Assembly (NCBI RefSeq): GCF_051622035.1
Contig: NC_135362.1
Coordinates: forward strand, 22,715,001 to 22,779,000
From: Arctopsyche grandis
Lineage: Eukaryota > Arthropoda > Insecta > Trichoptera > Hydropsychidae
Reading direction: 5' to 3'
DNA: 64,000 nucleotides
Of this stretch, positions 611 to 43,980 are shown piece after piece. How positions within the stretch are numbered: position 1 is the first letter of the stretch; every line of letters starts with the position of its first letter. The notes beneath the pieces were generated by a model. That model was not told the origin of the DNA, did no database searches, and saw only the letters and a list, made by a program, of their open reading frames with translations. The position numbers and the translations under genes were made by a program.

Positions 611-1042
611 TTATCGTCGAATTTCGTTGTTGATCGAATTTTCCTTGGATGCCTTAGTGGACGATTTCATTCTGATTGGTTTCGGCGTTGTCACCGGATC
701 GAGCCCTTTAATTTCGAATACGCCCCTGAAGAACGGCTTGAAGAGTCCCAAGAAAGTGCGATAGCGTTCAGCTGAATTCTGCAAACCAAAATGCATACTT
801 ATGTAAATCCAACGTCCATTACGTCTTCGAGGATTAAATTGGGAAGACGATGAAGAACCTGTATGACGCTGCCGATAACTTTAGTAGACTTGATTAGGAG
901 GGACACGGATGGCCCAAACAGCTCTCCCGGGAACTGGAGGCTGACTTTGTTCCTGTCGAAAACCGGGATGTTGTCTGTAGTGGTCGTTATAGTAGTACGG
1001 GGCCGGCGTGTCGTTTTGGATTGGCTCTGGGTTGGTGTACTG
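611..1042 (-). CDS. 3'-terminal coding exon of an unidentified gene, interrupted by one in-frame TAA
   Basis: One minus-strand frame runs from a splice acceptor (AG at 1044-1043, or alternatively 1046-1045) to TAA at 613-611, and is broken only by TAA at 883-881. The 53 codons before the break are Tyr/Pro/Gln/Asn-rich (for example PAPYYYNDHYRQHPGF), with mostly C- or G-ending codons, as in secreted or cuticle-like insect proteins. The 89 codons after it also look coding (for example ERYRTFLGLFKPFFRGVF, then a Lys/Ser/Asn-rich end), and a poly(A) signal follows. No good splice pair removes the stop: an acceptor-like TTTGCAG lies at about 786, but no consensus donor precedes it in frame. Either the protein ends with NQVY and the rest is 3' UTR or a readthrough extension, or the gene carries a nonsense mutation. 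The family is not recognised. Upstream exons are not assigned with confidence. Confidence 0.5.
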
Positions 1043-2429
1043 CTCTGTAATTATATATTATTTATTTGATTACATATCAAAATATCATTCATTTATATTT
1101 ACATGTAATAATATTTGTAATACATATGTATATAATACAATCATATTTAATTAAAATGCGGTACCGAAAATCGACCGTTGCCGAGTCATACAAGTCTCTA
1201 TTAAGGTTTCTAGTTACGAATTTGTCGTAACGAGATGCTACAACGAACTCTACGAGCCACATATCTTGAGACAAATCTTCCAACCTCGTTTCTTGATAAA
1301 ATATATACACCAAGTTATGACTCATTACTTAAATGAAATACATATATTAAATTTTTACGTATTATGAAATAATTCAGGCCTAAATACGAAATATTGAAGT
1401 GGTCTTCGCATTGCCAAAAAATTAAAATTTTTGTTTTCAAATATGTAAGTATGTATACATATTCATATGCATAAGTCTGTTAATATATACATATTCATAA
1501 GTCTGTTGATAAATATCTCATAGGCTATTTTTTTCGTTTAGGAATTGAAAAGCAGCATTGAAAATTATACCTCAAATAGAAAACGGTGAGACTATTTCAG
1601 TCTATTTTTTGAAAATGTGAAAAAACCATTCATTGAAAAACTTGTGAAACCATTCATTGAATTATGGTAAGAACACTCAAAAGTGCGGCGCGGTACGTAT
1701 AAGTGGAATCCAGTGATGAGAGGTGTATCTTCACACCACAGGGTTTGTCCATATCGAGTTTACACGTGGATATGCAATTCGTACGATCTTATTATTCCGA
1801 TAAGTTTCTCCTATATCTCTTCAAATATGGTAATCACTGCTATCGATCACTGTAAAACTTAAGTATGTAAATACAGGTATAAAGTATCACCGAAAATACT
1901 CCAGGAGCTGAAAGACGCTGCGGTACAGCTATGGCGAACTATCTATCTAGTATACTAAAAGCAATTAGAAATAACACGTGCCGCGCACCTCTCTGTGTAC
2001 CTCTCTACTTAGAAACTTGAACGAAACATCAAGTTTCGAAACATTTCATTCTATAGTATATTAGTTTTATGCCCATTGAAATTTCAACGGGTGCTTTCGG
2101 ATTGATACATGATTTAAAATAAAGTTACAATATGAATAGTAATAATTAATCGAAATCGGAACTGAAACAGAAATCGGGAATCGGTTATGCCAATTAAATT
2201 ATGCATTAAAAATTAACAATAGAATTATAAAACCCGAATTTGAAATCCGAATCAGAATCGGATAATATGAATAGTACGTATTTTTACATCGCGTGACGTA
2301 AGCAAAAATGTATGTTTAATTTACAAAACTCAATACCCACAACTATGTATAAACAAACCCCGGTCATTGACCTCGCAACCTTGAATAATATAAATTACAT
2401 ATATATTAAATTTAGAGTACCTCCTTTGT

Positions 2430-5220: not shown

Positions 5221-8200
5221 TTATTCATTGCTATCGTCATCGTCGTCTTCGTGAGAATCGGACGAATCGGAAATGGTGAGAGTCCCACCACCGCCTCCGC
5301 CTCCGCCTCCAGAGCTGGAGCCAGACAGGCTGGTGAAGATCCTCAAGATGGAGCCAAGGCCACTGCCACCCGATCCTCCATCGTGACCTCCTGAAGATCC
5401 TCCGGAGAGTCCTCCGAGGAGACCGGTGAACGCATTGATCTTGGGAGAAATGATCGACGAGAAGACGCTACCCAAACTAGCGGCTGGAGAGCCCGGTGCT
5501 TCGATTCCGTACATTTTATTCTGGACTATGTTCTGCTTGTCCAATTGGTCAATGAAACGTGTCTTGGAATCGATCAGCTGGTTGATTTTCTATATTTTAC
5601 CAAAAAATCCATCTCAATTATGTTTAACAAATATTTTTTTAATCATAAAACAAGATCAAGATCAAAGTCACAATACAAAAAGTGAACATTCACTTTTACA
5701 GTGCTTTTGTTGCTATTTTTTTTGTAACTAATTATTATAGATACTATGGATTTTTTTTAAATTAGTATCAAATAGTTTCTTTAATATAATTAATCTATAT
5801 ATGTATGATATTTGACATAATTTTGATGACATTTTAAATAAACCAATCCGAGAACATATTACTGCTGAGAAAGAAAGGTATGATATGGAGTTCTTGTACA
5901 GTTGTCATAATATTGTATTAATATACATAGTTCAATTAATGTTAATACATATGTAGATCAAATTGAAAATTTGTTTTCAATTGAAAAACAGCAATTGTCA
6001 TGAACATACTATATTAATTATTTGCTTGATTTTTTGTATAATTTGACTTGGCATTTTATTAACGTAATATATGTATATTAAATTTTATAACTCTTTTTTA
6101 TATATTAAATATTAAACTATTTACGTATATATTTACATATATGTTTCAATATAAATTTCGTGAAAATATATTATTTTCTTCACTTAACCAAATTCACATA
6201 TGAATAATTAAATTTATTTACCCCGAAAACAAAACCAAGAATGGCATTTTTGGCACCATATTTGGCTTGAGTGGCACCTTCCAAGTTTCTCTTGTCTCTG
6301 TCGGCATCATCTCCCGCTACTTCATCCTGCAATAAACCAAAAAGAAAAAGTTAACACAATTCAATGTGTAGATACGCTTTTTCCTTATTGTAATAATTTA
6401 TGTAACGCGGCTGTATTTGTCCGCGGAAATATAAACCTGTCTTCTTCCTCGCGTGTTTTCAATTTTATAACAATAATAACGCATGTAAGTAATAAATGGA
6501 TAGGTAAGATAATATAGTGTGAGCACCCATGTAGGTTAGTTATGAATACTTATGTATATGTAGGAGATTTGACTTTCGCCTTCTACAGCAATCTCACTTT
6601 CTTGCTCTCGCGTCGCAAAAAGGCCAACGAACCTCCGATCTAGACTTATGTAAGTTCAAGTCTTCTCTCGAGCATTTATTGTCGACAGTAAACCAAGTCG
6701 GGTGTGCTTTACCACCTTTTGAAATTGCGTGCGGAAATTGTACCAAGTGACACACGCCTTACAGACCGGTACGGAATTGCTATGTCCGTTTCATTTCCAT
6801 TTTACCCGCTTCGCAAATCATCACTTCCATTTCGTTTATATAAAATACATGCAATTAGAGATATAGAATATAAATATTAATATATTAATGACGTCAGATT
6901 CCAATGCACTCGTATAAAAGAGACTAGAAATTATTGTAAAAAAATATATTACATATATGGAATACTTTTATATGTCGGATGAAAAGAATTTTATTTAATT
7001 AATTGGTGATTATAATTCAAATATCATAGTAACATAGTTAAAATTATGTTAATTTGAAGCTAAGCTTACACGTGTAGTATTCGTGATTTGCCCATTTATA
7101 AAGGTTAATGTTTGTCGCATAAATAAATTGTGAAATTTTATTTTTCGACATTTTTTTCATATCAAAATTATATTTTATGCTTTTTAGATTACTTTTAGTA
7201 ATTCAGCTAGATTTAGTCGTATTTAGACGTGAAGATATTTTATTTATCTGCTAAGCACTCGGCACTCAGATCGTAAGTACATATATTATTTGATGTTCTA
7301 ATATTTTAATTGAAGTGTTTTTTTCAGATATATTGATATAGGGAAATATTAAAAATTATTCGAAAAAAATATTAGTTTTATTTAGAAGAAATATTTATTG
7401 TTGATTTTGAGACCGACATTCAAAAAGGTTCTCGACTTTTTACCTCCATCATATCGAGATTCTTGTGTTTTAAATAATCGTAAAGATCACTAGGTTGACT
7501 AACAATAGTTTCCGAAAGTGAAAATTTGTTATTGAATATTTTTGAACAGTATCGTAACTAAATAATGCTGTCATTTATTGGCTGTCAGTAATATTCATAA
7601 CCATAGTGATTTATGTTATAAATTTAAAATCAACCTACGCAAAGATTACATAAAATTATAGAGCAGAAATATGTATCTAAGACTAAAGTAACGTTCACTC
7701 GGTTCTCGTAAAGAAAGATTAAAATAAAGTAAAAAATCAGCCCACATAGAATTGCCGTTCACCTTGTCTACGAGATAGTTCCAATCGGCGTAATAAATTG
7801 TGCATGAAAAGTGGATCAAACGAGATAAACATTGTTCACTCAATAAAGACAAATTTCACTAGAGAAAAAAAAATGACACGTCACACGATGTAATATAATG
7901 AATGCTAACGACATGCAAAAGAAAGTGTGTGTGGGTTACGTCAAAATTTATCGAGTTCTCTTTCCTATTTTGTAAGAAATTGAATACGTACTTATATGCC
8001 TATGAGACTTGCTGAAACATTAATTTTTTTAAATGGAAAAACTAAATATAAATTATATGTAGTAGGTCACTTAAAGTGTGACCTGTTGGGCCAATGCTAA
8101 CTTCTGCAAACTTGTTCTGTGACAACTTTCACTGGGGCGCGACGATCGTTCTGACTCGTTGGATGTTAATCTGTCCATAGTTGCTCTAAATTTGTCCCTG

Positions 8201-11200
8201 AAGGCCGCAATTATTGTCTCAGGACTGTACAAAGAGCATTTGAAAATAACTGAATTTGACCCAATATTGAAGTACTAAAGTTTCAAAAATTCTCCACAGT
8301 ATGAAAAAATTGAACTACAGTTCTGACCGTGAAAACTTTTATTCTGATCATTTTCACCTTGAAAAAAGTCATTTTTGGGTCACCTGATCATAAAAAAGAC
8401 TCGAAAATGACCTTAACATCAGTACAGGTGCTTAAATCGTGCTGGTCAATAAATTAAATCAAATTCATACATCAAATCTTATAAGATTAATCTCTTTAAT
8501 TTGGACAGCTGTCTATGAGTGTTATAAATATGTAATTTGAAATCTAAATGATTAAAAACTTCTTCTATAATATAGTATTGCTTTTTTTAAATATAAATAG
8601 TGAGATTTTCGTGATTTTATGTATTATATAAATATTAACTTATATACATATGTACAACCTACATACATACATATACTAAAAAGTAATGTAAAAGTTCTCT
8701 TCAAGGATTCGTTTCAACTACCGTGAAATCATGCAATTTTTTGCGACACAATTCAAGGCTTATGACGTATGAGAGTTGTGTCGCAAAAAAGTGTTAATTA
8801 ATAAATATCCTATATAAAAAGTATTCCGATCCCGGAAATTTGATTAAGATTCTATTTTTCAGCACGATTGGAGTGATTTCAAGTAGGCACTGCAAAATAC
8901 CGGAATAAAAATTGCATAAAGTTGTAATTCTCAGGCAATCTTCTTTGAATACAATAATGGACGAGTTTAAAAAGCCATTTTAGTCGAGTTAAAAAATAAA
9001 ACGAACGGTTATGAAACGACGTTTTACGTATGCAAGTGTGCGTCCCTGCGGCTTCAGTTCCAGCTAAACGAGCGTGATGATCAACCCAGATTCTAGAGGC
9101 GATTTCCCAACGCCGTTATAACGAGTAAAGTTCAATCGATGACGGCTTCATATGTGCAATAATACTTAACAATATAATAGTTGCATGCAAAGCTTGCTTA
9201 CTTTGGGCCCTATAATAAAAAGTTGTTGAAAAAGCCAGTCGAATATCCTGTTCGGATGAATCTATTACCATGTTTGTTATGATACTTGTATATAGTATTG
9301 ACCAAACTCACTCATCATCTCATTGTGAATTGTGTACGTGTACAAGGTCTCGATCAAGTGTTTTTTTTTCGTAATCGATTTTGAATTCAGCTTATGTATG
9401 AAGTGCGCTACAAAGCGACACGAATTGGCGACATATGTCGTTAAAACGAAATTGAATCGACTATCATGCTGTTTCAGATATATAATTTTAGTTTATTCAC
9501 CGGGAAAATTGGCAATTCATCATCTAGAACTACATCTTTAATTATTTTGTCATAGTATGTACCTTCTCTAATTTAGACCGTAGAAAAACTTCTTGAAAAG
9601 ACTATATTTTTAACTGATTGTGTTCAATTTTCAGTTACACAAAAAACGCCGGGTAATTTAATTATAATATTATACAAAAATTTATTTAATATACGTATGT
9701 ATCTCCAATGTATCCATAAATTGTTAAATTCCAATAGTTGACAACAGTAAATTATTTTCCTTTTATACTTATGTATATTGAAGATCATTTAAAATTCTAT
9801 CAGTATTGTATCGAATATCTCATCAAAACTTTTATAAAATAATCATAAAATCATACTCTTGATAAAAATCATAATATATTCATATATTATATGCATCGCG
9901 GATATTTTTTATTATTTCTGATTGATTATAAGTTTGATTAAAAAAATGATTACAAAATTCGTATAAGGTTTTAAATAAAATTTAAAACGTCTCAACGGGG
10001 CCGACTTCACTCAAGCTTACATGTAACAGTGAAAGGACATCAAAGTGAAATCTTCCGCAAAATACAGCATATCCATTACAAAATTGCATCGTCCATACAT
10101 ACATACGGTACATTACCGGCAAAATTGAAGCAGTAAAAAGTGTTGTCACGTATCCTGAAATAGCCTAGCCGTGTGGCCGTTTATTTGACCATCGAGATGT
10201 CTATAGGTGAGGTGAAGTTATGATGTAATACGAATATGTATGATGGTGCAAATAGACATGCGGCTAATACAAATATGTAATTCTCTCGCAATAAACTGTT
10301 GACCCACGAAAATACAATAAATTCGGGTGACTTTTGCTTTCCAAGTAAAAGTATTTCATAAACGTATTAGACATTAGGCAATGATGATATTGTTCATCAT
10401 TTCAGATATCTCGAGAGCTTTTCAAGATTGTTTGTCTATTAGAAGAAAGTATTGAACGATTTCTATTTGGAATTGCGTACTGTGAACTATGGACATATTT
10501 TCGTTGTATTTTTTTTCGATTAGACCTTAGAAATGTTAATTGAGTAAACAAGGACGGGTTTACTCATGCGGAAGCCGTTGTGAAAATTCAATAAAGAGCT
10601 GTTGTTGTATTATTTTTGTGTGTTTTTTAATTGTTTCGTTGAGGAATTTTGGTCGATTTACATAAAAATGAAAAATTTAGAAAGAAGCAACCGTGTGAAA
10701 CGCTCAGGTTACACTTTAATTTTTATTAGTGCTCTAAAACTGGCGTTTTCCATTCAAAATATTAAATCATTGTTTTATTTAAAAATAAATATTCAACGAT
10801 AAATATATCCTTGAATAATCTACAGGTAATAACAAGAAACCCCAATGTTGATGGTCAAAAGTATTATACTAATTAATTATTTTATGTTTTTTTTGTTAAA
10901 TTAAATTTTTTAATTCATATTTTGCTTGACTTTATATTTTGTGTAATAAATTAACTTATAATATTATTTCAAGGAAAATATCGAATGAAAATAAAATGTG
11001 AAGAATTTCAGTGACATTGACGAGTGGTCAAGATCGAAACCCAAGGTTTTGTTTTATTCGTAAGTCTTATCAATGATAACTTTGCCATTTGTGCAATTTT
11101 TTAATATGATACTACTAATGAAGTTTTTGTTATTACAGATACAATTTAATCGCACTCCGAATTTAACAAGTTTTTACAGCACACCGTGTTAACTTCTTAA

Positions 11201-11618
11201 CGATTTCAAAATAGCACGTTTCGAAATTCCAAGGCAAACTTCTGTTGCCTTACTGAAGTAATTAATAACATTTCTTCGAAAATGAATACATATTTATACA
11301 TTGTGTTCCGAATCATAAATCTTCAATGTAATCCCAATATTTATTATAAACAATGATCAAATTAAAATAATCAAAACATGAAATTGTGTAAAGCATGTTT
11401 AAAACAAGAATATCATTAACCCAGATGAATGCAATAAAAATAAATCAATTCAAAATGTCAACGCTTCTTACGAAATAGTTGTAAAATATTTGACTTACGT
11501 CTACTGGTGTCAAATTCTCACTGTCCTGCAACTCGATCTGTCTCCTGACCCTGGGGTGTGAGTATGCGACCTGCACCACCAGAACAGACAACAACAGCAG
11601 ACACAACCACCTCGTCAT
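5221..11618 (-). CDS. gene A: secreted glycine-rich protein with acidic C-terminus, 3 coding exons (197 aa)
   Basis: Coding exons on the minus strand are 11618-11499 (40 codons), 6326-6222 (35 codons) and 5589-5221 (122 codons plus TAA). All junctions are GT-AG and phase 0. Residues 1-20 form a signal peptide (MTRWLCLLLLSVLVV start). RVRR at 23-26 is a furin-like site, and KR at 52-53 is a second dibasic site. Residues 60-95 are helical and charged (KINQLIDSKTRFIDQLDKQN). From residue 106 the chain alternates hydrophobic segments (GSVFSSII, FTGLLGGLSG, SILRIFTSLSG) with Gly/Ser linkers. Nine consecutive glycines follow, then a tail of Asp, Ser and Glu. The start is the first ATG after a TATA promoter (about 11741), and a possible acceptor at 11636-11635 would allow a spliced 5' UTR. 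The layout resembles gene B at 27-32 kb. The family and function are unknown; secretion into an extracellular, silk-like or cuticular matrix is only an inference. Confidence 0.82.
5590..6221 (-). other. intron 2 of gene A
   Basis: This intron begins GTAAAT (6221) and ends ATATAG (5590). It is AT-rich and no other feature is visible in it. Confidence 0.75.
6327..11498 (-). other. long intron 1 of gene A
   Basis: This intron begins GTAAGT (11498) and ends TTGCAG (6327). No second gene is supported inside. It holds a strong 18-bp-arm hairpin (8737-8790), a 21-bp AGGTCAC...GTGACCT inverted repeat (8064-8084), and less AT-rich patches at 6550-6830, 8070-8420 and 9000-9130 that could be regulatory or decayed repeats. 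Confidence 0.65.
8737..8790. repeat. perfect-arm hairpin
   Basis: The left arm 8737-8754 (TTTTTTGCGACACAATTC) and right arm 8773-8790 (GAGTTGTGTCGCAAAAAA) pair over 18 bp, with only one T/C difference (a G-U pair in RNA). The loop is 18 nt. It could be a small foldback remnant, a Pol II hairpin RNA or a protein-binding palindrome. Nothing here decides between them. Confidence 0.55.
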
Positions 11619-23308: not shown

Positions 23309-24013
23309 TAGTGGTGTGCCGTTTTTGGACTAAAGAGATTAAGCTAGTTCCCAAAAATCTTTTTCCTAAAATTCAAAAATATCTATTATTCAATTACAAT
23401 AAATTCAAATCATTGTCTTTATTGATATAGTTCATTCTATTAGCGAAGTTCAGAAACCGGAATGGGCCTTACCTAAGTTAGTGGTAGTGGATTGTAATAG
23501 TATGGTCCGTCGCGTTGTTCGCTTGCACGGACTCGCCGTCTCGATTCTGTTCCCTTCACGATACTGGCGAATTGTTATATATGTACATATAGGCGTTCCG
23601 TCGAAGACAAAACATTTTTTAATGTACTCGTTTATGGAATTTTCACTAAGGATATTCTGATTTGTGTCAATTTTTTTTGTTATAATAACACATATTTACT
23701 ACACATAACTTTTTGACTGCAAATATGGAAATGATTCTCTTAGAACCAATCAGTGCGGAGCGCGCGAAAACAAATAACGAAGCCTTGGAATGTTACATTC
23801 TTGATTGATTGTTCGACAAATCATTCAGAAGATTAAATTTTGAAGACAAACAAGATGTTATTAAGAAAAGTAGGTTGCATAGGATATCTCTGTTGGCGCA
23901 AAAACGAAAAATTGTACTCATCAATTCAAGAGAGATTATTATAATTTCAAAATTAAAAATATTTTTTTTGTCCATACCTAATCTCCTGTTTTAAAAGTCA
24001 CCGCACGCCACTG
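23309..24013. mobile_element. hAT-like deletion derivative
   Basis: The left end TAGTGGTGTGCCGT and the reverse complement of the right end CAGTGGCGTGCGGT match at 11 of 14 positions. Immediately outside are ATCTGTAT (23301-23308) and ATATGTAT (24014-24021), an 8-bp direct duplication with one mismatch, the length expected of hAT transposons. An internal frame (23809-23880: SFRRLNFEDKQDVIKK) faintly resembles the zinc-finger-MYM type hAT transposase N-terminus, but no full transposase is present. The superfamily call rests mainly on ends and duplication length. Confidence 0.6.
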
Positions 24014-24399
24014 ATATGTATGTACATATATAGACTTTTTATAAAAATACCAAGTAAGAGAACGATAAAACAAATCAAGCAAATTTATTGCATATAATAC
24101 AGTGCCTTAGATGAATAAGCCAAAATAATTAAAGTGGTATATTTTTTGTTAATTGAAAATATATTTATGTGGATACAAGCATGTGTGTAAAAAAGAGTAG
24201 TGTCCTTGATATTAAAATCATAACTATTTCCTGTTTTATACTATGTATATTTTTAAATTTTAAATGTATTTATTCATATATAATATTATATATGTAGTAC
24301 ATAAGTACTTTTAGTACGAGCTCCGTATTTAGTATAGATAGTAAATCCGGCCCTTTTTAGTACGAGAAACGGTCTAGGCATTGACCTGATTGTATTCAG

Positions 24400-24800
24400 A
24401 TTACGATGTAATCAAATTGAATTGCCGAATCTCACCTGTTGTGCTGTGCTGTTATCAAAATGACGCCACAGATTCGAATCAACCAATGGCGTCGGTTCGC
24501 GCTCGCGGAAACGACCGGCGAAAGAGAGAGTTTGGCGCGAAAATCACACACGAGTCTAAACAGCGACAATCGCGACCGTAACCTACGTAAAAAAATAAAC
24601 CGGAAAACGACGTAATAGACAAGTAAGCTTAGTTGTAGTAAGTAAGCGATGTCGCGGCGCGGTTCCGACTCTTGGACTTGGTGTTTGTTGGCCACGCGCG
24701 CATTCCTCCCCACCACCTACCACCTATTTTCACTTTTTATTTACCCTCTCCTCGACGTTTGATTAGGCAAAACGGACGCTGGCTGACCGTCCTCCGCCAC
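24400..24800. promoter_or_regulatory. GC- and CpG-rich island, possible promoter or untranslated first exon
   Basis: In an otherwise very AT-rich window this block is GC-rich and CpG-dense, for example CGTCGGTTCGCGCTCGCGGA. It has a CCAAT box (AACCAATGG, about 24480). Donor-like GTAAGC sites lie on the plus strand at about 24623 and 24645 (AAGTAAGC). No long convincing ORF runs through it, so an untranslated first exon or bidirectional promoter is the likeliest reading. Confidence 0.35.
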
Positions 24801-26260
24801 ATTGCACTTTGTATTGCCTATACTCTGTTGTATTTCATTTAACGCAAGTGCTTATTCTTCGAGACGAGCACGCGAAGGCCGCGGTTGCAACAGAAGCTCG
24901 GGATGTTTGTGAAAATTGCTACAATCGCGTGCCTCTATCAATATTTGCATATCTAAAAAATATACAAGTCAATCTGCTACTATTATACCCACTATGGTAC
25001 AAGGATTTAAATGGCTGTGTGTGACTACAGCTTATGAAGGCCTTTACATAGATGAATCATTACACGGACTTAAAGGGTGGTTATTCAGAAACAATCTGAT
25101 CTTATATCTATTCAAATCTTGTTGATCCATATAGGCCGCACTTTTTCAAATAGGTAGTTATTAAAAAAAGAAATAAATTCTATAAAGAGAAGATATAAAG
25201 AGAAGATGACTATGAGAAGATGATGTGTTTATCATGCGAGGGGTGTTTAGTTAGCATACTGGCTGAAATTGGAAAATATATTAGCCTTTCTCGATGATCA
25301 CGAGAATTGTTGTTTGAGAATTTGTTGGTTTAATATAACAATAATTATATCTCCATCATGTAAAATGACACTACCAAAAATCTTACCTAGTTCTTCACGA
25401 AATCATAATCCATTCCCACTTTTGCTCCAGAAGATATCTGCTCGAGATAATAATCATCTCCAAAATAACTTCAATTACATGGAAAATAGAATGAAATATA
25501 TGTATATATGTACATATGTGTCGATAAGATTAAATAGATGATAATTTTCCACAAAATGGGTAGATTAGGTAGTTATAGCCAAGAGAATTTAAGATATGTA
25601 CACATATGTATATTCATGATCTTCAATGGTGCAGAAACAACAAGAAATATACTACACATGGGTATATATTTTTATAAATGAATATTGTATTATGACATAT
25701 GTACATACATGCAGATCTATAAATACAATTGGGAATTATTTTATTTTATTTATATAATATATAATATACAAAAAAGATATATACCAAACTAAAATTAGCA
25801 ACTATAATATAACCCACATGTGTATTTTAATTATCAATCTTAATTCAATTACATCTTCTACAGAGGTATCTATTAACACTTGCCGCACTGTGGTGTATAG
25901 CGAGTGACCAGGACTTATATTTTATTTTATTTCTCCAAATATACTGAATATATTTTATGTGTTCCACGTCAAAACCTCTATGATTCGAATAATGTCATTA
26001 CGAAATAAAAACATTGATCAATGTCAACGGAAATAATTATTTTCACGGTAAGCCCCTTGTACACGTGCCTCACAAATGTGAGAGAGACAGTGGAGTTCAG
26101 TACGCACCACGCTCAGCAGCCAGTGTGAGAATGATATCCGCCTTGTAATGATGGCTCCACTTTAGCCGTTATTTTTATAAATTTCTTGCACTTATTTTAC
26201 ATTATTCGACGTTTATTTTATTATTACGCATTATTTTAACTGAAAACAAACATTTTTCAC
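24801..26260. other. non-coding stretch
   Basis: Short open frames without bias; (TACATATG)-type microsatellite near 25500-25700. A minus-strand donor-like site CTAG|GTAAGATT is present at about 25387, with no convincing exon before it. Confidence 0.4.
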
Positions 26261-26264
26261 TCGA

Positions 26265-26430
26265 CGCCTGGAGTCCACCACAGTGATTACTGGATTTTTT
26301 TGCTCAGTAAGACAAGTTTTAACACCCTTTAAGAAGACACTTATGTTTTTGGCACCTCCAATTTTTTCTGGAAGGGTGTTATAGAACGTCCCGTAGAAAA
26401 CACCTGCAGTTCTTGCTTTCCTAACCTACT
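26265..26430 (-). mobile_element. decayed LINE C-terminal fragment
   Basis: Minus-strand translation from 26425 reads VRKARTAGVFYGTFYNTLPE, then a Gly/Ala/Lys stretch and SVFLKGVKTCLTEQ. This aligns with the LINE fragment in the esterase gene (VRKNKTAGGVFHRGVLMYNA, LPECVRSAKNMDAFLRGAKR): TAG-VF, YN-LPE, F-L-G-K. It is therefore an older, independent relative of that LINE. Upstream it is too decayed to follow. Confidence 0.6.
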
Positions 26431-26996
26431 TATAATTTATTTATTTCTATTTCTATGATTATGCATATCTAAGTGCTTAATTTAAGTATATTTCTAATAT
26501 ACAACCATTTCTTAGATATTTTACATTTATCTTAGATACTCTTAAAATTATATAAGTACATATATACACGTACATATGGATGCTATTGTTCGTGTTGTAT
26601 TTTTGGTATGAAAAAATAAATGAAAAGTTATTTAATAACTGTTTAACAGGATATTGATTTAAAAATGATATATAAAATTATATTTAAACTAAAAAGTTTC
26701 TTAACGACTTTTATATGGGAAATTTTCATCTTTAAATGGACATTATGAATGTATGTATATTAATGATAGATTATATATACCATTTTGAGATAGAGTTGAC
26801 AAGATTGAGATATCAAAAATGACGTACATACAGAAAAGTAAAAACGAATTAATAGGAAGTAGTAAAAGGAGGCAGTTAAATGGGCAAGGAACAGTTTAAA
26901 TATTCTCACATTACAACTTAAAAGGTTTATTTACAAAATCGATTAGATAAATATACAGAAAATCTTAAAGCATTACTGTAAAAATATCGAGAGTAT

Positions 26997-27002
26997 TTTA
27001 TT
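26997..27002 (-). terminator. probable poly(A) signal of gene B
   Basis: A minus-strand AATAAA lies about 220 nt downstream of the gene B stop codon (27224-27222). An acceptor-like TTTTTCAG near 27070 could add a spliced 3' UTR exon before it. Confidence 0.4.
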
Positions 27003-27221
27003 GGCAATTATAATAGCCGATCGAACAGTCATCATTTTGACTCGCCTCATCATATACAGGAACGGCTGAAAAATATTTTTTAATAAAGCGATTACTTGTA
27101 AATACTAATTCAATCGAACTACCACAGTATAATATACATGCATTAGTCAATTAGTAAATTAGCTCACAAATACTACACTAAATAAAATTATCGCATTTAA
27201 AATATATATACCAGAGTTGAA

Positions 27222-30200
27222 TCAGTTCGATTTTGAACTCCCTCCAAACAATGACGATATTAAAGATAAGAAAAAGGATGCAGAATCAGATCCACCGCCA
27301 CCCTCTCCAGAACCACCTCCAGACTGAAAAATTCAACAAACAAGATATGTCAATATAAATATTCATAAATTTACACCACTTACTAATTACCCATCGCCTA
27401 CGACTAATTCCAATCTATATATGTACATACACAAGTAACAGGCCTATAGTAATATATACAGCTTTTAAAGCGCCCACAATTACAATTATAAATTTAAACT
27501 TATTCTAGTGTATTTACACATTCTATAAATCCATATTGAGACGATTTCCGTCATCATTTGACATTTGATTGCGAGAATGTTTGTAATTATTAGCATCGAG
27601 ATAATGACACTTGACTCAATGAGAGAAATCAATAGGCAGGTATCGACGATGGTAGATCTGAAATGACTCTTTGAAAATTTGCATAAAAACTTTCGTATTA
27701 CGTAAAAATAGCTTTTATATCATTACGAGGCTTACAAAATACTATATTAATGCTACTAAAAAAATCACACCTTCACTTAACAGAAAATTATTTTTATTTA
27801 AAACTAGCATTACCGCACTGCTTCCACCGACCACAGTTCCAGCCAAATTTCCAAGGAAAGCTCCATTATTCATCTGAAATTACAAATATGTTTCATAAAC
27901 AGCTGACTTCAAAATACAACAGATACTTTAACGATTATAAATATACCGCTCCTCCTCCTGTAAGTCCTTCTAAAGCAGTTACTATGTAGGTTCCAATAGA
28001 AGTTCCGATATTTTGAGATCCATCGCCCTAAAATCAAATCAAAATTTAATTCAATAAAACACAATAAATACTTAACATGAAAATTAAGATAAATATTCAC
28101 CCCTAAAATACCAGCTAGCAATCCAGCAACAGTTCCAATCAATGAGTTCAAATCGAACCCTTCACCCTAAAATATAAAAAAAGTAATCAATACACAATCT
28201 TTCAATCAATATACATATGTATATGTATGTATGTATTTTCGTACTAACTCCACTTAAATTAGCAACAATTGATCCAACGGTAGTCAAAAGTGTGCCTAAA
28301 TCTGACTGCCCTCCTTCCTAAAATTACCATATCTTGAAGATATATTATAGATATAATAGCTTAAATTATTAAATAGTGAAATTACCCCACTAAGTCCTGC
28401 AAGAAGTCCCAATATTCCTCCTCCCATTCCGTCGCCACCTCCAGGCGGTTCATCTTCATCAGAGTCTTCGGACGACTCTTCGATCTCTTGATTTTCTAAT
28501 TTAGTTTGGTTCATACGCTTCTGTAGTGTTTCTACAATCTATGCACGCATTGTTTAATCTCAAAATCTCAGTGCTCGTTTATACATAGTATGTGCACTAA
28601 AAAAGTATAACTCACCATAGAAACACATACATTAGTCACACGATATTAAAATGAAGACAAATAAAAAAAAAGTTAACGGAAACAACACGATGATGAAATA
28701 TTCTTCGGAATTGTATAAGCTTTTTCGAAGTAAGATTTCAATGAAAAAATGCTGAAAACTGTGCGTGCAAAAAAGATTCACATATATACCAAAACCATTT
28801 CAATACAGTGTTAATATTATAATTGCCTGTAAAATATTGTATTCACCTGTTCAACTTGTCGACGCACTCTTGAATACACTTCGGACACTTTCGAATCCTT
28901 CACCAATCACGTTTATACAAAAAAATTCATATAATGATATATAACAATATATACATAAACATATTACAAAAATATGTACAAATTAATAATATATTTTTAT
29001 ATAGTATACATCTATAATAAATAAATATTTACAAAAGTTGGAATGGGTTTAAATATACTTGTTCATGTCTCTTTGTGATTTATGTATAGTGAACACGATT
29101 AAAAATATTTTAATATTACTTTTTTAATATAATTATAAATATTGAAATTAATACATTTACATATAATCCTTTATTTAAATAAATAAGGCCAACTTGTCAA
29201 TGCGATACCTACTGAAAGTTACTTACCTTCAAATAAATCTACATGCACACGGGCGTTTTTAGTTGGATAGTTTTTTGAGTAATTTTTTGTATGAAATTGA
29301 ACTATTTATATGTAACAGGAAATGATCTAAATGAGATTGTAAACTTGCTCGATAAGTAAAAACCAAATTCGTGTGAAAAACGTTTATGAGTAAAATGTGT
29401 ATGTTTATTTTATTTTTTAAATTAAAAATGTCGTATTTTTTATGAGACTAATAAATACTGACCGAGCCACTGCTGGAACTTCCTAGAATTGATGTAACAA
29501 TGCCAGCCATTCCTCTGCCTGTTTTCTGAAATCAATCAATTAATATTTCTCAAAAATGATTTTCATGAATCATGTGCAAAAAAAATTATTTAAAATTACC
29601 TTTGGGGGATATATAGGTTCTCTGTCAATTTCATGACTAATTTCGTCGTATTCTGTAGGATCCATCTCAATTCGCACATTCTGTCGGCCGACCCGTTTTT
29701 TCTACAAATCAAAAGATGAAAACGATATTTAGAAAGTCAAATAGCACATCTACTAGTGTGTAATGACACAACTGTTGTAATTTTAATTTTCGAGAACGAA
29801 ACACTTGATGCAACGATCATTTAAATCAATATTTCGCACGGGTCAACAATTAATACGTTCGGATATGGTACGCACGCACATTTAAAGATTCGCATTTTCA
29901 TTTAATATTGCGTGTTTTATAACACGACGATTTACATTTTCAATGTTGCAAACAATCAAATTGTCCCATTAAAACTTTGACCTTTCGATCGACTGTAAAC
30001 AAAGCGGTCGTCATTTCATTATATAACACACGGGCTCTCAACTTTCTATGCAAAATTCAATATCAATAATGCTAGTGTTCTTGAAAAAAAAAACACATCC
30101 TTGGATTTGCGGAACGATTCATTGGCATCTAATTTGATTTTTAAATATTTTCTGATTGTCAAAACAAGCAAAAGAGACACTTTTGAGAATTCATGAGATC

Positions 30201-32340
30201 AGATTTAACAAACAACCGGTTGCCTAGATGCAAATATTATACAAATACAGTAATAAACAAAACGAAATTAACTCTCGATTATCCGGGTGCGGATTATCCG
30301 TACTTAAAAAATATTATCATTTTTTTAAATTAATTTAATTTTTTTCTTATATGATTTTGAGACGCACAAGAAAAAAAACATTTTAAAACAAAATATGAAC
30401 AATTCAAAACACAACTTTTATTTTATATATTGTTTTATGTACACAATATTATTATACTCAAATAATAAAATAATTTAAGCTAAATAATTTAAGTAAAAAT
30501 CTTTTGTTTTTTTAGCTTTCTTACTAACGAAAAAAATCTAATTTCAAATTTACATATACAATACAAATTTCTCTATATGCCAGCGGTTTCCAAACTGGGA
30601 GGCGCGCCTCCCTGGGGAGGCGCGGACTATTGCCAGGGGAGGCGCCAAAACTTTTTAATAAAAAAATAATTTTCATACCATAATATCTACAAATAAATAA
30701 AACTTCATATCGTAGCTTAACAATAAAAATTAAATGCATGAATGTTTATTTTTCTCTCATTTTTATATACACATTTAATTAGCAACCTTTCTCGAAGAAA
30801 ACCAACATGAAGAGGCACATTTGTGGTCGAACGATAATTTTATTGTTAAATTTGCCAATTTGGTTAAAATTTTTGGAAAATTGAGCGTTTTAAATAAATC
30901 AATGCGGGGATCACAAATACATCCACCTTTTTCAAAAAGACAAAGTAAAAGCTTTCATTAAAAAGTTGAAGTTATGGAAATCAAATTTACAAAAGAATGA
31001 GTTGGATATGTTTTCACTTTCCAAAGATTTCTGGGCCACAGCCAATATTGAAGCAAGTAAAAATGTTTTTATTGACCACTTAGATGGTTTAGTGCTGCAT
31101 TTTTCCAATTATTTCAAAGACCTCCATTCTATTTTACTATGTACAATGAAGAAAGACGAATTCGAGACAACCATCGAAAAAAACAAAGCGATAGCTCACT
31201 AAAACGAAATTTTCAAAATGAAACCATAATTAAATTTTGGATGAATCTTAGTGGAGAGTATGAATCTTTATATTGCAAAGCAATGCAAATGCCTCTACCG
31301 TTTGTAACGTCTTATTTATGCGAAACGGGCATTTCGGCACTAGCTGCAATGAAAACCAAATCTTGTGTCAAATATCGAGCCAGGTTAATAGTTGAAAAGG
31401 AATTACGAGTGGCACTCTCCATATTGCCCCCAAGATTTGATAAACTTTGTGCCAATAAACAAAAACATCCTTCGCATTAAATTTTGATTTGTTAGATGTA
31501 GTTTAATTAGTAATTTAATATAAAAATAAATATACGTGTTCGTATAAATTTATATTATAGCAAAACCTTTTTATTATTCTGTCTATTGTAGTGTTCATTA
31601 TTTTTAAATAAAAGTTTATTATTTAAAACGTGTCTATATTATTATATCTATTCAAAAATAAAATTAAGGGAGGCGCGGAAAAAAAAATTTTTTTTAGGGA
31701 GGCGTAGTAGCATAAAGTTTGGAAACCGCTGCTATATGCCGTAAAATAAATTATAAAATTAAAATCAATAAAAATGATATTGCCTAAAGACGTATTTTTA
31801 TACCGTTAGCAAGAGGGTGATTTTCAAATCTGTTAGCCTGAATATATTTTCTCTATGCACCTTTTTAATATCACCAAGAACGAAAATCTGTCTGGCACGA
31901 TCTCTGTTACATGGACAGTCGAGACATGGACGCTTAAAATGATATTTATTTACATATTATACTTCATCTTATATTTTATTTTATTAAAAAATGTGTTTCG
32001 ATTTGAAGGCGGTTAAAAAACCCGCGATTTAATATGTACAAAATAATTGTTATTGTAATGAAAACAAAAACAGTATGTTGCATGTCAGTGTACTTTTTCA
32101 AGGCGTCGTAAAAATGGGTCTCCGTTGTTTGGATTAAATTAACCGTAATATTTTAATTGATCTATTATATAATATTAAGTAGGTTACACTTACATCGATT
32201 TTATTTTCAGTTTTTGCTGCTTCCAAAGCGTTGGACTCATCCTTTAACTCTTGGCCGACATTTTGAAGTGGCTTTGCGCAAATTTCGTTAAAAATTATCA
32301 GCAATATCGTAAGATTTATCAAGCTCATTAATTTCTTCAT
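27222..32340 (-). CDS. gene B: secreted glycine-rich modular repeat protein, 10 phase-0 coding exons (297 aa)
   Basis: Coding exons (minus): 32340-32194, 29701-29600, 29525-29463, 28897-28847, 28538-28386, 28317-28249, 28166-28101, 28027-27947, 27873-27814, 27323-27222. Every exon is a whole number of codons (49, 34, 21, 17, 51, 23, 22, 27, 20, 33 plus stop) and every intron is GT-AG. Residues 1-22 are a signal peptide (MKKLMSLINLTILLIIFNEI start). Next come a charged region, RVRRQVEQ at 114-121, a helical QKRMNQTKLENQ stretch and an acidic block (ESSEDSDEDE, about 142-151). Six glycine-hydrophobic modules follow, roughly one per exon (GGGILGLLAGLSG; GTLLTTVGSIVANLSG; GTVAGLLAGILG; GTYIVTALEGLTGGG; GNLAGTVVGG; FFLSLISSLFGG). 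The start is the first ATG after an acceptor at 32364-32363. Exon 4 has a poor polypyrimidine tract, the least certain junction. The family is not recognised. A hAT element sits in the first coding intron. Confidence 0.85.
29227..29238 (-). other. possible 12-nt microexon of gene B
   Basis: On the minus strand GCATGTAG|ATTTATTTGAAG|GTAAGTAAC places 4 codons (IYLK) between an acceptor and a near-perfect donor, in phase 0, between coding exons 3 and 4. The acceptor tract is weak. It may instead be a chance donor. Confidence 0.2.
30581..31731 (+). mobile_element. hAT transposon copy with partial, frame-shifted transposase
   Basis: Terminal inverted repeats CAGCGGTTTCCAAACT at both ends are bounded by a perfect 8-bp target-site duplication CTATATGC (30573-30580 and 31732-31739), diagnostic of hAT. 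A GGGAGGCGCG subterminal motif is present. The 1151-bp body encodes only the C-terminal half of a transposase, across at least two frame changes (about 30780-30960, 30966-31202, 31139-31480). It includes the hAT dimerisation region (FWMNLSGEYESLYCKAMQMP, SYLCETGISALAAMKTK, ending LCANKQKHPSH), as in ZBED5/FAM200-like relatives. It is internally deleted and non-autonomous. It lies in the first coding intron of gene B, in the opposite orientation. Confidence 0.93.
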
Positions 32341-33141: not shown

Positions 33142-33220
33142 CTTAGCAAAGTTATTAATGTTTTGATTGCAGTTTGAATGCAATTTTGAAACAATGCGAA
33201 GCGGGATCGAACGAATGACT
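33142..33220 (-). other. non-coding first exon of gene B
   Basis: The start site is inferred from an initiator TCAGTC (33222-33217, A at 33220 as +1). The exon ends at a strong donor CTAAG|GTAAGATC (donor GT at 33141-33140). The receiving acceptor is TTTATTTAG at 32364-32363, giving a short spliced 5' UTR before the ATG at 32340. Confidence 0.6.
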
Positions 33221-33252
33221 GACCGAATGACGATTCGTTGTATCCCTTTATA
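33217..33252 (-). promoter_or_regulatory. core promoter of gene B (TATA plus initiator)
   Basis: TATAAAG occupies 33252-33246, that is -32 to -26 relative to the initiator A at 33220 (TCAGTC, the arthropod consensus). A second TATATAAAA lies just upstream (33262-33254). The spacing is textbook and the following exon ends in a good donor. Confidence 0.65.
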
Positions 33253-36967: not shown

Positions 36968-39167
36968 ATGGATTTTCCACGTGTTAAACTTAAATTGGGA
37001 GATTTGAAAGGTGTAAAAGTGAAAACCATCAATAATAAAGAATATTTTAGCTTTAAAGGAATACCATACGCTGAACCACCAATTGGAAAATTGAGATTCA
37101 AAGTATGTAAATACATTCATGCTATTAAATCTAAGTACTTTTAAGTAATTCGTAAACATTTTAGGCACCTGTTCCCGTTAAAAATTGGACAGGTATAAAA
37201 GAAGTCACTAAAGAAAATAATATAGCCCTTCAACTTGATGAAAATACTAGGAGTGTAATAGGAGATGAAAATTGCTTATTTTTAAATGTGAACACACCAA
37301 GTTTGCCATCAAAAAATAAATGCTTATATTCAGTGCTTGTATATCTTCATCATGGAGGCTTTATAGTTGGTTCCGGAAGTGCAGCAAAGTTTGGACCTGA
37401 TCTATTCATCGAACAGGACATCGTCTTCGTTTCAATCAACTATCGCTTGGGTGCTTTTGGATTTTTATCCTTAGGTTGTGCAGAAGCAACTGGAAATATG
37501 GGTTTAAAAGATCAAAGTTTAGCTCTTCGTTGGGTTCAAGAAAACATCGCTTTATTTAATGGAAACCCCAAAGACGTTACTTTAATGGGTATCAGCGCAG
37601 GATCTGCTTCAGTCGAATATCAAATGCTTTCGAAGGCATCCGAAGGACTATTTCACAAGGCGATATTACAATCTGGATCTTGTTTAAACCCTTGGGCTCG
37701 CACTAAAGATCCTGTCAAGTTGGCCTATGACTTGTGTAGAGATTTAGGTCAAGATTTTGACGATGTTGAAAATGTATTGGAATATTTGCAATACGTTGAT
37801 TTCCAAAAATACAGAATAAAGCTATGAGAGCTATTTTGAATGTGAGTAGATTTAAGAGTATTGGAAGTATGTTAGATGAATTAGGATGGATGAGTATTAG
37901 AATTAGTCTAAATATTAGTACATTGTCTTTTGTTTATAAGTTAGATCATAAGTTATTACCTAAGTATTTTGATGATTATATAATAAGGAATAGAGATAAA
38001 CATAGTTTTTATACTAGAAATAAGGACAAACTAGTTGTAAGTAGAGTAAGAAAGAATAAGACGGCTGGGGGTGTTTTTCACAGGGGTGTGCTCATGTATA
38101 ATGCCCTCCCTGAGTGCGTCAGGTCTGCTAAAAACATGGATGCATTCCTGCGAGGTGCGAAGAGACACCTCTGTGAGGGACAGTACATATAAGTTAATTA
38201 TAAATTTTAGAGTTAAGTATAATAATTAAGATGTATTTTTTTTTTAAATTAGCTTGATAGCTAAAATATATATAAATAAAAAATAAATAAAATAAATAAA
38301 AATAAAATAAACTCATAATGGCGTCGAACAAACAAGTAAGCGAACAAGATAAAAGGACGAGTGAATTATTCAAATTTACACCTGTTATTGAAAAAAATAC
38401 ACCCGGTATAGAACCATTCATAAGTGAAGAGCCTTTGACTCTGTTTAAAAAAGGAAAATTCTCAAAAATACCTACTATCACTGGATTTTCTGAAAAAGAA
38501 GGCACACTCTTCAAAGAAGACTACGGAGAATGTGTTGAAGATATGCTCAAGCAAAATTTCATAGAATACCTACCATTCAAAGGTAACAAAGCCGATTTGG
38601 ACCAAAGACTAAGACAAATATATAAACCAAGAGAAGAAGATATAAATGATGACGATTTAGTAAACGACTATTTATCAGATTTGCTATTCATCGGTGGCAT
38701 ATTCACATCTTTGTCTCAAAGGTTAAAGTATAATAACGAAGATTATTTGTATAAATTCAAATACAACAGCAAAGTAAATTATTTCAAGGTATGTTACGAT
38801 ATAAAAGAGGCTGGGGCTTGCCACGGAGACGAGGTTTCGTTTTTGGCGATAACCTCTGAGGTCGACGAAGGTAATTTTACCACGAAGGATATCCTCGTCA
38901 GAAAACGAATGGTGCAAATGTGGGCAAACTTTATAAAAACAGGGTAGGTATAATTTTATACACACTAACAAAGTCGTATTATGTTTGAATTGTTATTGTT
39001 ATTTTAGAAATCCCAATTCAAATATGATTAACGGAGTGGATTTTGAATGGCTTCCGGTTATACAAGACGATTTGAAATATTTGGAAATATATGAAAATAT
39101 GTCCATGAAATGCAATCCATGGCCGGAAAGGGCATTGTTTTGGATGAACTTGTATATAAATCAATGA
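36968..39167 (+). pseudogene. carboxylesterase (type-B, alpha/beta hydrolase) disrupted by a LINE insertion
   Basis: Exons are 36968-37102, 37165-37809 continuing at 38312-38943, and 39008-39167; the introns are 62 and 64 bp, GT-AG. Without the insertion the frame codes for about 523 residues, normal for insect carboxylesterases. There is no signal peptide, suggesting an intracellular enzyme hydrolysing carboxyl esters (xenobiotics, lipids or odorants). Family landmarks are FKGIPYAEPPIGKLRF (N-terminus), DENCLFLNVNTP, an oxyanion-hole region HHGGF (107-111, usually HGGGF), NMGLKDQSLALRWVQENI, nucleophile Ser189 in GISAGS (usually GESAGG), Glu323 in FSEKEGTLF, His431 in GACHGDEVSFL, and MVQMWANF near the end. 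The catalytic triad is therefore intact. A 502-bp LINE fragment between codons 260 and 261 brings an in-frame TGA at 37825-37827. It is probably a recent null allele or pseudogene. Confidence 0.88.
37810..38311 (+). mobile_element. 5'-truncated LINE inserted in the esterase exon
   Basis: A 122-codon frame (37824-38192) matches the end of a CR1/Jockey-like reverse transcriptase ORF (QNKAMRAILNVSRF at the breakpoint, then SMLDELGWMSIRISL, KLLPKYFDDYIIRNRDKHSF, MYNALPECVRSAKNMDAFL). It is followed by a short 3' UTR and an (AAATA)n-type tail ending at 38311. The host frame resumes at once with CTC ATA ATG. The left breakpoint falls within a run of A, so any target duplication is hidden. The frame is undamaged, so the insertion is young. 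An older relative is at 26265-26430. Confidence 0.88.
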
Positions 39168-42100: not shown

Positions 42101-42930
42101 ATTTATATCAATTGTAGAACGTCACTTCGCTCAGTCGTTAAAGTAAACCGGATACTGCAAAGCACCTAGTGATAAAGTTCATTAAGCTGGCTTACACTTT
42201 TTATCAGATTGCTTGTATTTGTACAAATACAACTACAGATGTGTAGCTATAATATAGTAGAAATAATGAGATGTGGACGCCTAAATAATTTTTTAGACAC
42301 TTCACATTGAAAAAATTAAAACCCACTCGCTTATTTGGAATTGAAAAAAGTCCACCGAAAAAACTGAAATCGTGCACGGTGCAAAAAGTCAAATGTCAAC
42401 TGTCGTATCGCGAATTTAGTCAAGTGTGTCGATCGAACGTATCAACTATTAAACGTTTAGTTGAAATTTATAAAATATATAGTGCTTCTTCATCGCAATA
42501 AAATGCATCATATAAATTTGCAACGCTTTTTGCAATCGAGTAAAATAATGCAATTGATTTCGATCGTGTTGCGAGATTTATAATTCTATTGCCCGATTTG
42601 GACACGTTTCGAATTTTGTTACTCTCTTCAATTACTAAAAGATTTTTACAGAATTTAAACACGTTTGATAATATACTATACATATGTATGTATTATAACA
42701 GTTGAACTGTCTGGCATTGTTCAGGCGTATGAAAATCAGTAGGAAAAATAGGGAAAAACGAATTGTATTTGGAAAATGTTATAGTCTATGATCTTAGCAT
42801 GCATATGTACTAAATCACGAATACATTTTACTATGTATATTCTGTTATTTTAAATTTAAAACTGCAGATTGAGATAATGAACAAATCCATTCAGTATAAA
42901 ATGAGATTTAATATGAATATTAATATAATA
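39190..42930. other. intergenic stretch with two coding-like patches
   Basis: Mostly AT-rich. At 40370-40605 a purine-rich plus-strand block (Glu/Lys/Arg-rich frame) ends at a donor-like ATCAAG|GTAACC, so it could be a 5' UTR exon. At 41554-41787 a minus-strand fragment looks coding but is frame-shifted (listed separately). The rest is unremarkable. Confidence 0.4.
41540..41787 (-). pseudogene. coding-like fragment, family unknown, frame-shifted
   Basis: A minus-strand frame from 41784 reads MVKGLFNNLNIFARKAAKCS, then VVIDGIFAKPGDEDQPF and NWEEEHLC. After a shift at the local TACGTACG sequence (about 41632-41640) another frame continues YDGAAIVASAVEELSGRGYQ before a stop near 41550. The residue mix and codon use look coding in both parts, suggesting a decayed exon or mobile-element ORF. 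I do not recognise the protein. Confidence 0.3.
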
Positions 42931-42938
42931 TATGTAGT

Positions 42939-43380
42939 CAGCAGTATGGCTCGGTGGTTGCGTTTATGTTTAACACCGTGAGGTTACCGGGTTCAATCCC
43001 GTGCTAATTTTTAATCCTCCTGATCAGACTTGGATATTTGCGACTCCAAGCCGATCTTTTCCTATCAAAGCCAATTTATCTGATTTCATTGTTGAAACGG
43101 TTCCTCCATCAAATTGGCAAAAACTATCCTACCCGCTATCGCACAAATATTTGAATTTGATTTATGTACTTGTACATAAATTTTTACATAATTATGTAAA
43201 AATTGATGTACAAGTCTAAATCCATAGATGTCTCTATGGATTCATTCAGAAATACAGCGATTTATCTGTTAAAAAATTCTGCAATGTATGTAATTAATTG
43301 TCTAGGTAGGCGCATTGGGGTTTACCTAATAGGCCTTCCTGGTATATATCTGTGTAAAAATAAAATAAAATAATAAAAAT
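42939..43380 (+). mobile_element. tRNA-derived SINE, full-length-looking
   Basis: The A box TGGCTCGGTGG (42947-42957) and B box GGTTCAATCC (42990-42999) are 43 nt apart, as in tRNA genes. A tRNA-unrelated body follows (GACTCCAAGCCGATCTTTTC, then TTTATCTGATTTCATT and AAATTGGCAA). The 3' segment (TAGGTAGGCGCATTGGGGTT to GGTATATATCTGTG) ends in an (AAATA)n tail. Acceptor-stem pairing is poor, so this is not a working tRNA. A relative with a different head is at 62468. Confidence 0.8.
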
Positions 43381-43524
43381 AGTGCAATTCAGAATAATCA
43401 TATATTGGTTGGTAGAGAATTTTAATCATGATTCATGAAAAACCAAGCTCTGTCCGGGTTATATTTTTACAAACTTGTCCAAATAAGTGACGGTATAATT
43501 AGTACAAACCGGTCTCCGTGACGA

Positions 43525-43897: not shown

Positions 43898-43980
43898 CCG
43901 TGAGGTAGACCCAGTTCAAACATATGTATCTAGAACCATAGTATTATATTAAATATGGTTAGATCAAAATTTGAATTTTA

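What the first reader, a model, noticed from the sequence alone, without database searches (positions are those of the whole stretch)
27222..32340. Ten-exon secreted glycine-rich protein built entirely from phase-0 modules
All ten coding exons are whole numbers of codons. Exons 5 to 10 each carry one glycine-hydrophobic module of about 20-30 residues with G/A-xxx-G spacing (for example GTVAGLLAGILG). Symmetric 0-0 exons are what exon duplication or exon skipping would need, so the protein could vary module number by splicing. I recognise no family, so it may be an undescribed structural or membrane-active secreted protein.
Basis: partly seen in the sequence, partly recalled or inferred. Interest (0 to 1): 0.75.

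Follow-up and report, generated by a model that had tools for sequence, protein, structure and literature searches.

The report
Insect gene of helix-bead exons
This looks like a real insect gene for a secreted, glycine-rich protein in which most short exons carry one small amphipathic helix on a flexible linker, so splicing could add or drop helices without breaking the reading frame; what the protein does, and whether splicing really does this, is not known.

Summary
On the minus strand, ten coding exons at exactly 27222-32340 join by AG/GT into a 297-residue protein with a signal peptide; all ten are whole codons and all nine introns are phase 0. Exon 4 and the start of exon 5 are the weak parts. 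A TATA box, an initiator and a non-coding first exon are predicted upstream.

The interpretation needs refining. The strongest regularity in the modules is an amphipathic alpha-helix (100-degree periodicity, z 6.2); G/A-xxx-G spacing is weaker (G/A in trimmed cores: 17-18 of 2000 shuffles). Exon 3 carries a module too.

Two more same-strand genes (11.6-5.2 kb, and a 3' end at 1.0-0.6 kb), read by hand, also show phase-0 introns and helices running across a joint. Pfam and PDB give no credible match. Closest in gene layout: vertebrate SCPP genes. Exon skipping is possible but unseen. Function is inferred: a self-associating extracellular material.

The parts
33246..33252 (-). TATA box TATAAAG, 32 nt upstream of the initiator
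33142..33220 (-). predicted non-coding first exon (79 nt), starting at the A of a TCAGT initiator, donor AAG|GTAAGA
   Evidence: consensus reading, not shown by transcripts
32194..32340 (-). coding exon 1: signal peptide (cleavage probably after ICA, by eye) and pro-region; preceded by 22 nt of predicted 5' UTR from 32362
   Evidence: the gene finder prefers the ATG at 32328
30581..31731 (+). hAT-like transposon relic inside intron 1 (not part of the gene): 16-bp terminal inverted repeats, 8-bp target duplication CTATATGC
   Evidence: Pfam gave no family for the ORF 31076-31480, so the hAT name rests on the ends and on recall
29600..29701 (-). coding exon 2: charged region (KKRVGRQ...)
29463..29525 (-). 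coding exon 3: module KTGRGMAGIVTSILGSSSSGS
28847..28897 (-). coding exon 4: helix half with RVRR motif; weak acceptor, not chosen by the gene finder
28386..28538 (-). coding exon 5: helix continuation, acidic Ser/Glu/Asp block, module GGGILGLLAGLSG; acceptor weak, alternative at 28520
28249..28317 (-). coding exon 6: module SDLGTLLTTVGSIVANLSG
28101..28166 (-). coding exon 7: module DLNSLIGTVAGLLAGILG
27947..28027 (-). coding exon 8: module NIGTSIGTYIVTALEGLTGGGA
27814..27873 (-). coding exon 9: module MNNGAFLGNLAGTVVGGSSA (Gly every fourth residue)
27222..27323 (-). coding exon 10: Gly/Ser linker, module DSASFFLSLISSLFGGSS, stop codon
26997..27002 (-). first AATAAA after the stop (+219); another at +290, ATTAAA at +137 and +585
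5221..11618 (-). gene 2, same kind: exons 11618-11499, 6326-6222, 5589-5221 read by hand, both introns phase 0, signal peptide, RVRRQIE motif, helix across a joint, Gly-rich and acidic Ser tail
   Evidence: the gene finder returns these three exactly but adds three exons between 9209 and 6598, one entered in phase 2
611..1044 (-). gene 3, 3' end only: exons 1044-859 and 778-611, phase-0 intron, amphipathic helix across the joint; its 5' exons were not fixed

Best explanation
A real gene (host taken to be an insect), read from the minus strand from a predicted TATA promoter, encodes a secreted protein that acts as a string of beads. After a signal peptide and a pro-region come one longer helix (E4-E5), an acidic Ser/Glu/Asp block and short amphipathic alpha-helices (seven modules counting E3), each with a hydrophobic face and small residues (Gly, Ala, Ser) elsewhere, joined by Gly/Ser-rich linkers; nearly every bead is one exon. 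Shown: the open exons, phases, splice signals, composition and helical periodicity. Inferred: the helices are loose in solution and associate through their hydrophobic and small-residue faces once concentrated outside the cell, giving a film, fibre or coating, with the acidic block as a charge or calcium contact. Because every exon is in frame, bead number can change by exon duplication in evolution or exon skipping in the tissue; the second is only a possibility.
For: Exons and phases; unconstrained gene finder 69 versus at most 18.9 in 22 tiles; the ten-exon model itself 64.4; TATA, initiator, 5' UTR exon and AATAAA found by consensus. In nine hand-delimited modules (seven here, two of gene 2) hydrophobic residues are in excess at i+3 (28 vs 13.5, z 5.2), i+4 (33 vs 12.8, z 7.2) and i+7 (21 vs 10.9, z 3.9) and short at i+2 (5 vs 14.3, z -3.3). 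The power spectrum of the seven modules peaks at 100 degrees (z 6.2; 90 degrees 4.0, 110 degrees 2.2), with every value from 120 to 180 degrees below the mean of the shuffles. Summed helical moment over 11 segments of the three genes: z 5.2. Runs of G, and of G/A, at every fourth residue in trimmed cores: 14 and 17 of 2000 shuffles reach the observed value. Modules resemble each other (0 of 1000 shuffles) and those of gene 2 (2 of 1000). Six of the seven joints from E3|E4 to E9|E10 have 6 or 7 of 8 flanking residues from G, S, D, N, E; the exception is E4|E5, inside the helix (2 of 8). Helix direction is continuous over that joint and over one joint each in genes 2 and 3 (differences 26, 10 and 8.5 degrees; P 0.003 for random angles, 0.005 for shuffles; joints chosen by eye). 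AlphaFold of exon 5 alone: helices at residues 2-16 and 42-47, mean pLDDT 67.5.
Against: No transcript, proteome or orthologue was available. Only 4 of the 11 segments tested for helical moment have p below 0.05 alone (E3, E8, one of gene 2, gene 3); E5, E7, E9 and one gene 2 segment lie between 0.17 and 0.28. Of 36 module pairs, 7 have p of 0.05 or less, uncorrected. Helix periodicity is common in ordinary proteins and does not show self-assembly. AlphaFold confidence is low (67.5 here; 52.9 for gene 2 exon 3), without an alignment. At the DNA level the modules hardly exceed codon-shuffled controls (15 of 300 reach the score), so recent exon duplication is not shown. E4 and the E5 acceptor rest on weak sites, and leaving E4 out scores slightly higher. 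The E4-E5 helix is not a significant heptad (1552 of 5000 shuffles reach it).
Confidence: 0.45

Rival explanations
1. An ordinary low-complexity structural protein (cuticle, silk, egg shell or gut lining) whose uniform phase is just inherited; splicing is constitutive and the helices have no special role.
For: Gly 51 and Ser 35 of 297 residues, the one Cys in the signal peptide, a predicted TATA promoter, and like genes nearby are usual for such proteins (recalled). [quoted passage not shown]
Against: No Pfam cuticle or silk family among the matches up to E = 1. Ten coding exons is many for such a protein (recalled), and the alpha periodicity with depletion at i+2 is unlike beta or Gly-repeat structural proteins.
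Confidence: 0.3
2. A precursor of membrane-active defence peptides, the exons giving Gly/Leu-rich helices comparable with frog plasticins.
For: Modules look like short Gly/hydrophobic helices with GxxxG, which a review links to self-association and to plasticins (PMC8156082, passages); RVRR-type cleavage motifs occur in genes 1 and 2. A Nasonia defensin-like gene shows one repeat per exon (PMC2853521, passages).
Against: Six of seven modules have net charge 0 to -2; the last 146 residues hold 1 Lys and no Arg, so no basic cleavage sites separate the modules there; no AMP family among the Pfam matches.
Confidence: 0.12
3. A fast-evolving secreted effector (saliva, venom, gall or reproductive fluid) of the many-small-exon kind, like aphid bicycle genes.
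For: Many small internal exons of one phase in putative effector genes that sequence search hardly finds elsewhere is how bicycle genes look (PMC9168663, abstract start and passages).
Against: Phase 0, not phase 2, and no cysteines in the mature protein, so no CYC motif; low complexity; nothing known of the tissue or of the rate of evolution.
Confidence: 0.1
4. The 5' half of the model (E2 to the start of E5) is partly wrong: the real protein has other exons there. This can be true beside any of the readings above.
For: E4 omitted and E5 acceptor moved by the gene finder, a different chain at penalty -3; acceptors weak; variants without E4 or with E5 from 28520 score up to 4 nats higher at -6 and 2 at -4.
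Against: E2 and E3 are recovered exactly at -4, -5 and -6; the RVRRQ[VI]E motif of E4 recurs in gene 2; the helix is continuous across E4|E5 (26 degrees).
Confidence: 0.2

Closest known systems
Vertebrate SCPP genes (amelogenin, ameloblastin)
   Same: Secreted extracellular proteins from gene families; [quoted passage not shown] small exons are duplicated in ameloblastin of 12 species (PMC4518657, passages).
   Different: Vertebrate family; enamel members P/Q-rich (PMC4518657), not Gly-rich helical modules; no Pfam match of any such kind here. Alike in gene layout only.
Tropoelastin and fibrillar collagen genes (recalled; only a search listing seen)
   Same: One symmetric exon per hydrophobic or Gly-rich module in a self-assembling extracellular protein (recalled).
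   Different: Elastin introns are phase 1, with crosslinking lysines, and collagen needs Gly-X-Y (all recalled). Here phase 0 and 1 Lys in the last 146 residues.
Frog plasticins, Gly/Leu-rich peptides
   Same: Gly/hydrophobic segments with GxxxG that can be helical and self-associate (PMC8156082, passages).
   Different: Plasticins are single peptides (recalled); here linked modules in one long protein, mostly neutral or acidic.
Aphid bicycle genes
   Same: Many small internal exons of one phase; putative effectors (PMC9168663, passages).
   Different: Phase 2 and CYC motifs there; phase 0 and Cys-free mature protein here.

Membership tests
[quoted passage not shown]
   9 of 9 introns phase 0 in the hand model
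SCPP family | non-coding exon 1, then an exon with 5' UTR end and signal peptide (recalled) | tested here: inconclusive
   predicted from consensus sites only
[quoted passage not shown]
   Pfam lists nothing related up to E = 1, but no tree or synteny was possible; the host looks like an insect, so membership is not claimed
bicycle genes | internal exons almost all phase 2 | tested here: not met
   8 of 8 internal coding exons start in phase 0
bicycle genes | CYC motifs | tested here: not met
   1 Cys in 297 residues, in the signal peptide
R&R chitin-binding cuticle proteins | chitin-binding R&R domain | tested here: not met
   not among the four Pfam matches up to E = 1
Catalogued Gly-rich insect AMPs (attacin and the like) | family profile match | tested here: not met
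   none among the four Pfam matches up to E = 1; whether each such family has a Pfam model was not checked
Gly/Leu-rich plasticin-type peptides | amphipathic Gly/hydrophobic helix with GxxxG | tested here: met
   a resemblance of pattern, not descent
Gly/Leu-rich plasticin-type peptides | released as a free peptide acting on membranes | not testable with these tools
   1 Lys and no Arg in the last 146 residues, so no basic cleavage sites between modules there

The most novel reading that the evidence does not exclude
An undescribed insect gene family, at least three members on one strand here, builds extracellular material from exon-encoded amphipathic, glycine-faced helix beads with phase-0 introns throughout, and sets bead number, and so material properties, by exon skipping: an insect counterpart, reached independently, of vertebrate SCPP and elastin genes.
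Probability: 0.2. Interest if true: 0.65.

Novelty: new variant of a known kind. Interest (0 to 1): 0.4.

Why it matters
Modular extracellular proteins whose exons match structural units are well known in vertebrate matrix genes; an insect gene with about one amphipathic helix per symmetric exon would be a compact, testable case of how module number is set by gene structure, and a possible source of self-assembling helical material. The shared layout of neighbouring genes gives a structure-based handle for finding relatives that sequence search would miss.

Tried and rejected
Rejected: beta-sheet or 3-10 periodicity (summed moment z -1.4, -0.2 and -0.3 at 160, 180 and 120 degrees). Rejected: GxxxG as the main regularity (weaker than hydrophobic spacing). 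Not supported: exon duplication visible in DNA (15 of 300 codon shuffles reach the observed score; one of the best hits, E5/E8, is out of frame as I read it). Rejected: E4-E5 as a heptad coiled coil (1552 of 5000 shuffles reach it).

Led nowhere: viral-contig scans with exon 5, gene 2 exon 3 and gene 3 last exon and genome-contig scans with gene 2 exon 3 and gene 3 last exon: pattern hits, none confirmed by tblastn, as expected for collections of viruses and prokaryotes; phage blastn of gene 2 exon 3; Foldseek of the exon 5 model against PDB, no match (collected); PDB sequence search, best E 0.26; Rfam at gathering scores and tRNA scan of the window, nothing. No 5' exons of gene 3 could be fixed. 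The host could not be named; 'insect' is my inference by recall and no call shows it.

Literature: ten searches listed no paper on such an insect gene. Two returned none; four listings were cut (31: 10 of 124, 32: 10 of 96, 52: 8 of 33, 58: 15 of 18). I saw listings with the starts of abstracts, and passages of six papers; no paper was read whole. The library is open-access only.

Limits of my tests: splice matrices were written by hand from recalled consensus; the gene finder was trained partly on genes 2 and 3, which are of the same kind; its gene 2 chain has three extra exons; modules and cores were delimited by eye before the shuffles; the E5 module was cut out of its exon; intron phase shares are assumptions.
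Full report
What is there. Reading 27222-32340 on the minus strand gives ten open exons with AG and GT borders, all multiples of three, joining to 297 residues and a stop. Intron lengths are 2492, 74, 565, 308, 68, 82, 73, 73 and 490 nt. Upstream, TATAAAG at 33252 lies 32 nt before the A of a TCAGT initiator at 33220, followed by a 79-nt exon with a strong donor (4.1) and a 779-nt intron ending 22 nt before the ATG; AATAAA lies 219 nt after the stop. If so, the gene has eleven exons, ten of them coding.

Is it real. I wrote a small gene finder (codon log-odds, hand-written splice matrices, all three phases free) trained on a carboxylesterase and on genes 2 and 3, not on this gene. At intron penalty -6 it scores the region 69.1. 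Of 24 tiles run elsewhere, two (both strands of 23700-29299) overlap the gene and are dropped; the other 22 score at most 18.9. It omits E4, starts E5 18 nt later and E1 at the next ATG. Results against: at -3 a 15-exon mixed-phase chain wins in the 5' half, and at -8 five exons remain. E6 to E10 hold at -3 to -6; at -8 E6 is lost. The acceptors of E4 and E5 are weak (-1.8, -2.0; median of 240 AG in the region -1.7). Two things speak for E4: its RVRRQVE recurs as RVRRQIE in gene 2, and the helix it begins continues in phase into E5.

What the modules are. Hydrophobic residues in nine modules (seven of this gene, two of gene 2) are strongly spaced at i+3, i+4 and i+7 and avoided at i+2 (z 5.2, 7.2, 3.9, -3.3). 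The spectrum of the seven modules peaks at 100 degrees, z 6.2. Summed helical moment over 11 segments of the three genes is z 5.2, but only 4 of 11 have p below 0.05 alone; E6, E10 and one gene 2 segment lie between 0.05 and 0.1, and E5, E7, E9 and another gene 2 segment above 0.16. For every-fourth-residue spacing, whole modules give z 1.5 (G) and 2.1 (G/A). In trimmed cores, runs reach the observed value in 14, 17 and 17 of 2000 shuffles for G, G/A and G/A/S; pair counts in 72, 18 and 646; pair counts with hydrophobic positions held fixed in 68, 24 and 878. So each module reads as a short amphipathic helix with small residues on its other face. Exon joints from E5|E6 on fall in linkers rich in Gly, Ser, Asp, Asn and Glu. 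AlphaFold on exon 5 alone gives two helices, 2-16 and 42-47, pLDDT 67.5; gene 2 exon 3 gives helices 2-26, 40-46 and 50-58 at pLDDT 52.9. Both are single-sequence models and only suggestive.

Relatives in the window. Gene 2 (11618-5221, minus), read by hand, has a signal peptide, two phase-0 introns, an RVRRQIE motif, a helix across a joint, Gly-rich modules and an acidic Ser tail. The gene finder, which had it in training, returns its three exons exactly but puts three more between them, one entered in phase 2; I take these as false, without proof. Gene 3 (3' end, 1044-611) has a phase-0 intron and an amphipathic helix across it. With the acceptor before 1044, which also fits phase 0, 13 of 13 introns of the three hand models are phase 0. 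Modules of genes 1 and 2 resemble each other beyond composition (2 of 1000 shuffles), but a shared helical pattern could produce this without descent.

What it is not. Pfam up to E = 1 gives four weak matches for gene 1, all below their cut-offs (best E 0.038). PDB best E is 0.26. Bicycle, R&R cuticle and Gly-rich AMP membership fail on tested features. No eukaryotic collection was searched, and the own-genome search did not complete. Absence of a match therefore says little about orthologues, and I expect some to exist as uncharacterised insect proteins.

How it may work. The best reading is a secreted string of helix beads that associate outside the cell through hydrophobic and small-residue faces, with the acidic Ser/Glu/Asp block (also seen in gene 2) as a charged or calcium contact. 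Gene layout, not sequence, resembles vertebrate SCPP genes, where phase-0 introns throughout most members keep splice variants in frame (PMC5118209, passage). Skipping any internal exon here would keep the frame, but nothing shows that it happens.

Verdict.

Noticed in passing
5221-11618: A second secreted Gly-rich gene, read by hand with only phase-0 introns, on the same strand (exons 11618-11499, 6326-6222, 5589-5221).
   Followed up: partly
611-1044: 3' end of a third same-strand gene with a phase-0 intron and an amphipathic helix across it; 5' exons not fixed.
   Followed up: partly
30581-31731: hAT-like transposon relic in intron 1 with 16-bp terminal inverted repeats and an 8-bp target duplication CTATATGC; Pfam gave no family for its ORF at 31076-31480.
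   Followed up: partly
36968-39167: Carboxylesterase gene on the + strand (Pfam COesterase in two pieces) whose coding region is interrupted at about 37815-38320 by what looks, by recall, like a 5'-truncated non-LTR retrotransposon end (Pfam gave no family for 37800-38192); this copy looks broken.
   Followed up: partly
43511-43911: Nested near-perfect inverted repeats (98-nt arms 94% and 71-nt arms 99% complementary), perhaps a foldback element.
   Followed up: partly
39500-45099: Minus strand gives the highest null gene-finder score (18.9, four exons, mixed phases); could hold a weak gene or reflect the inverted repeat.
   Followed up: no
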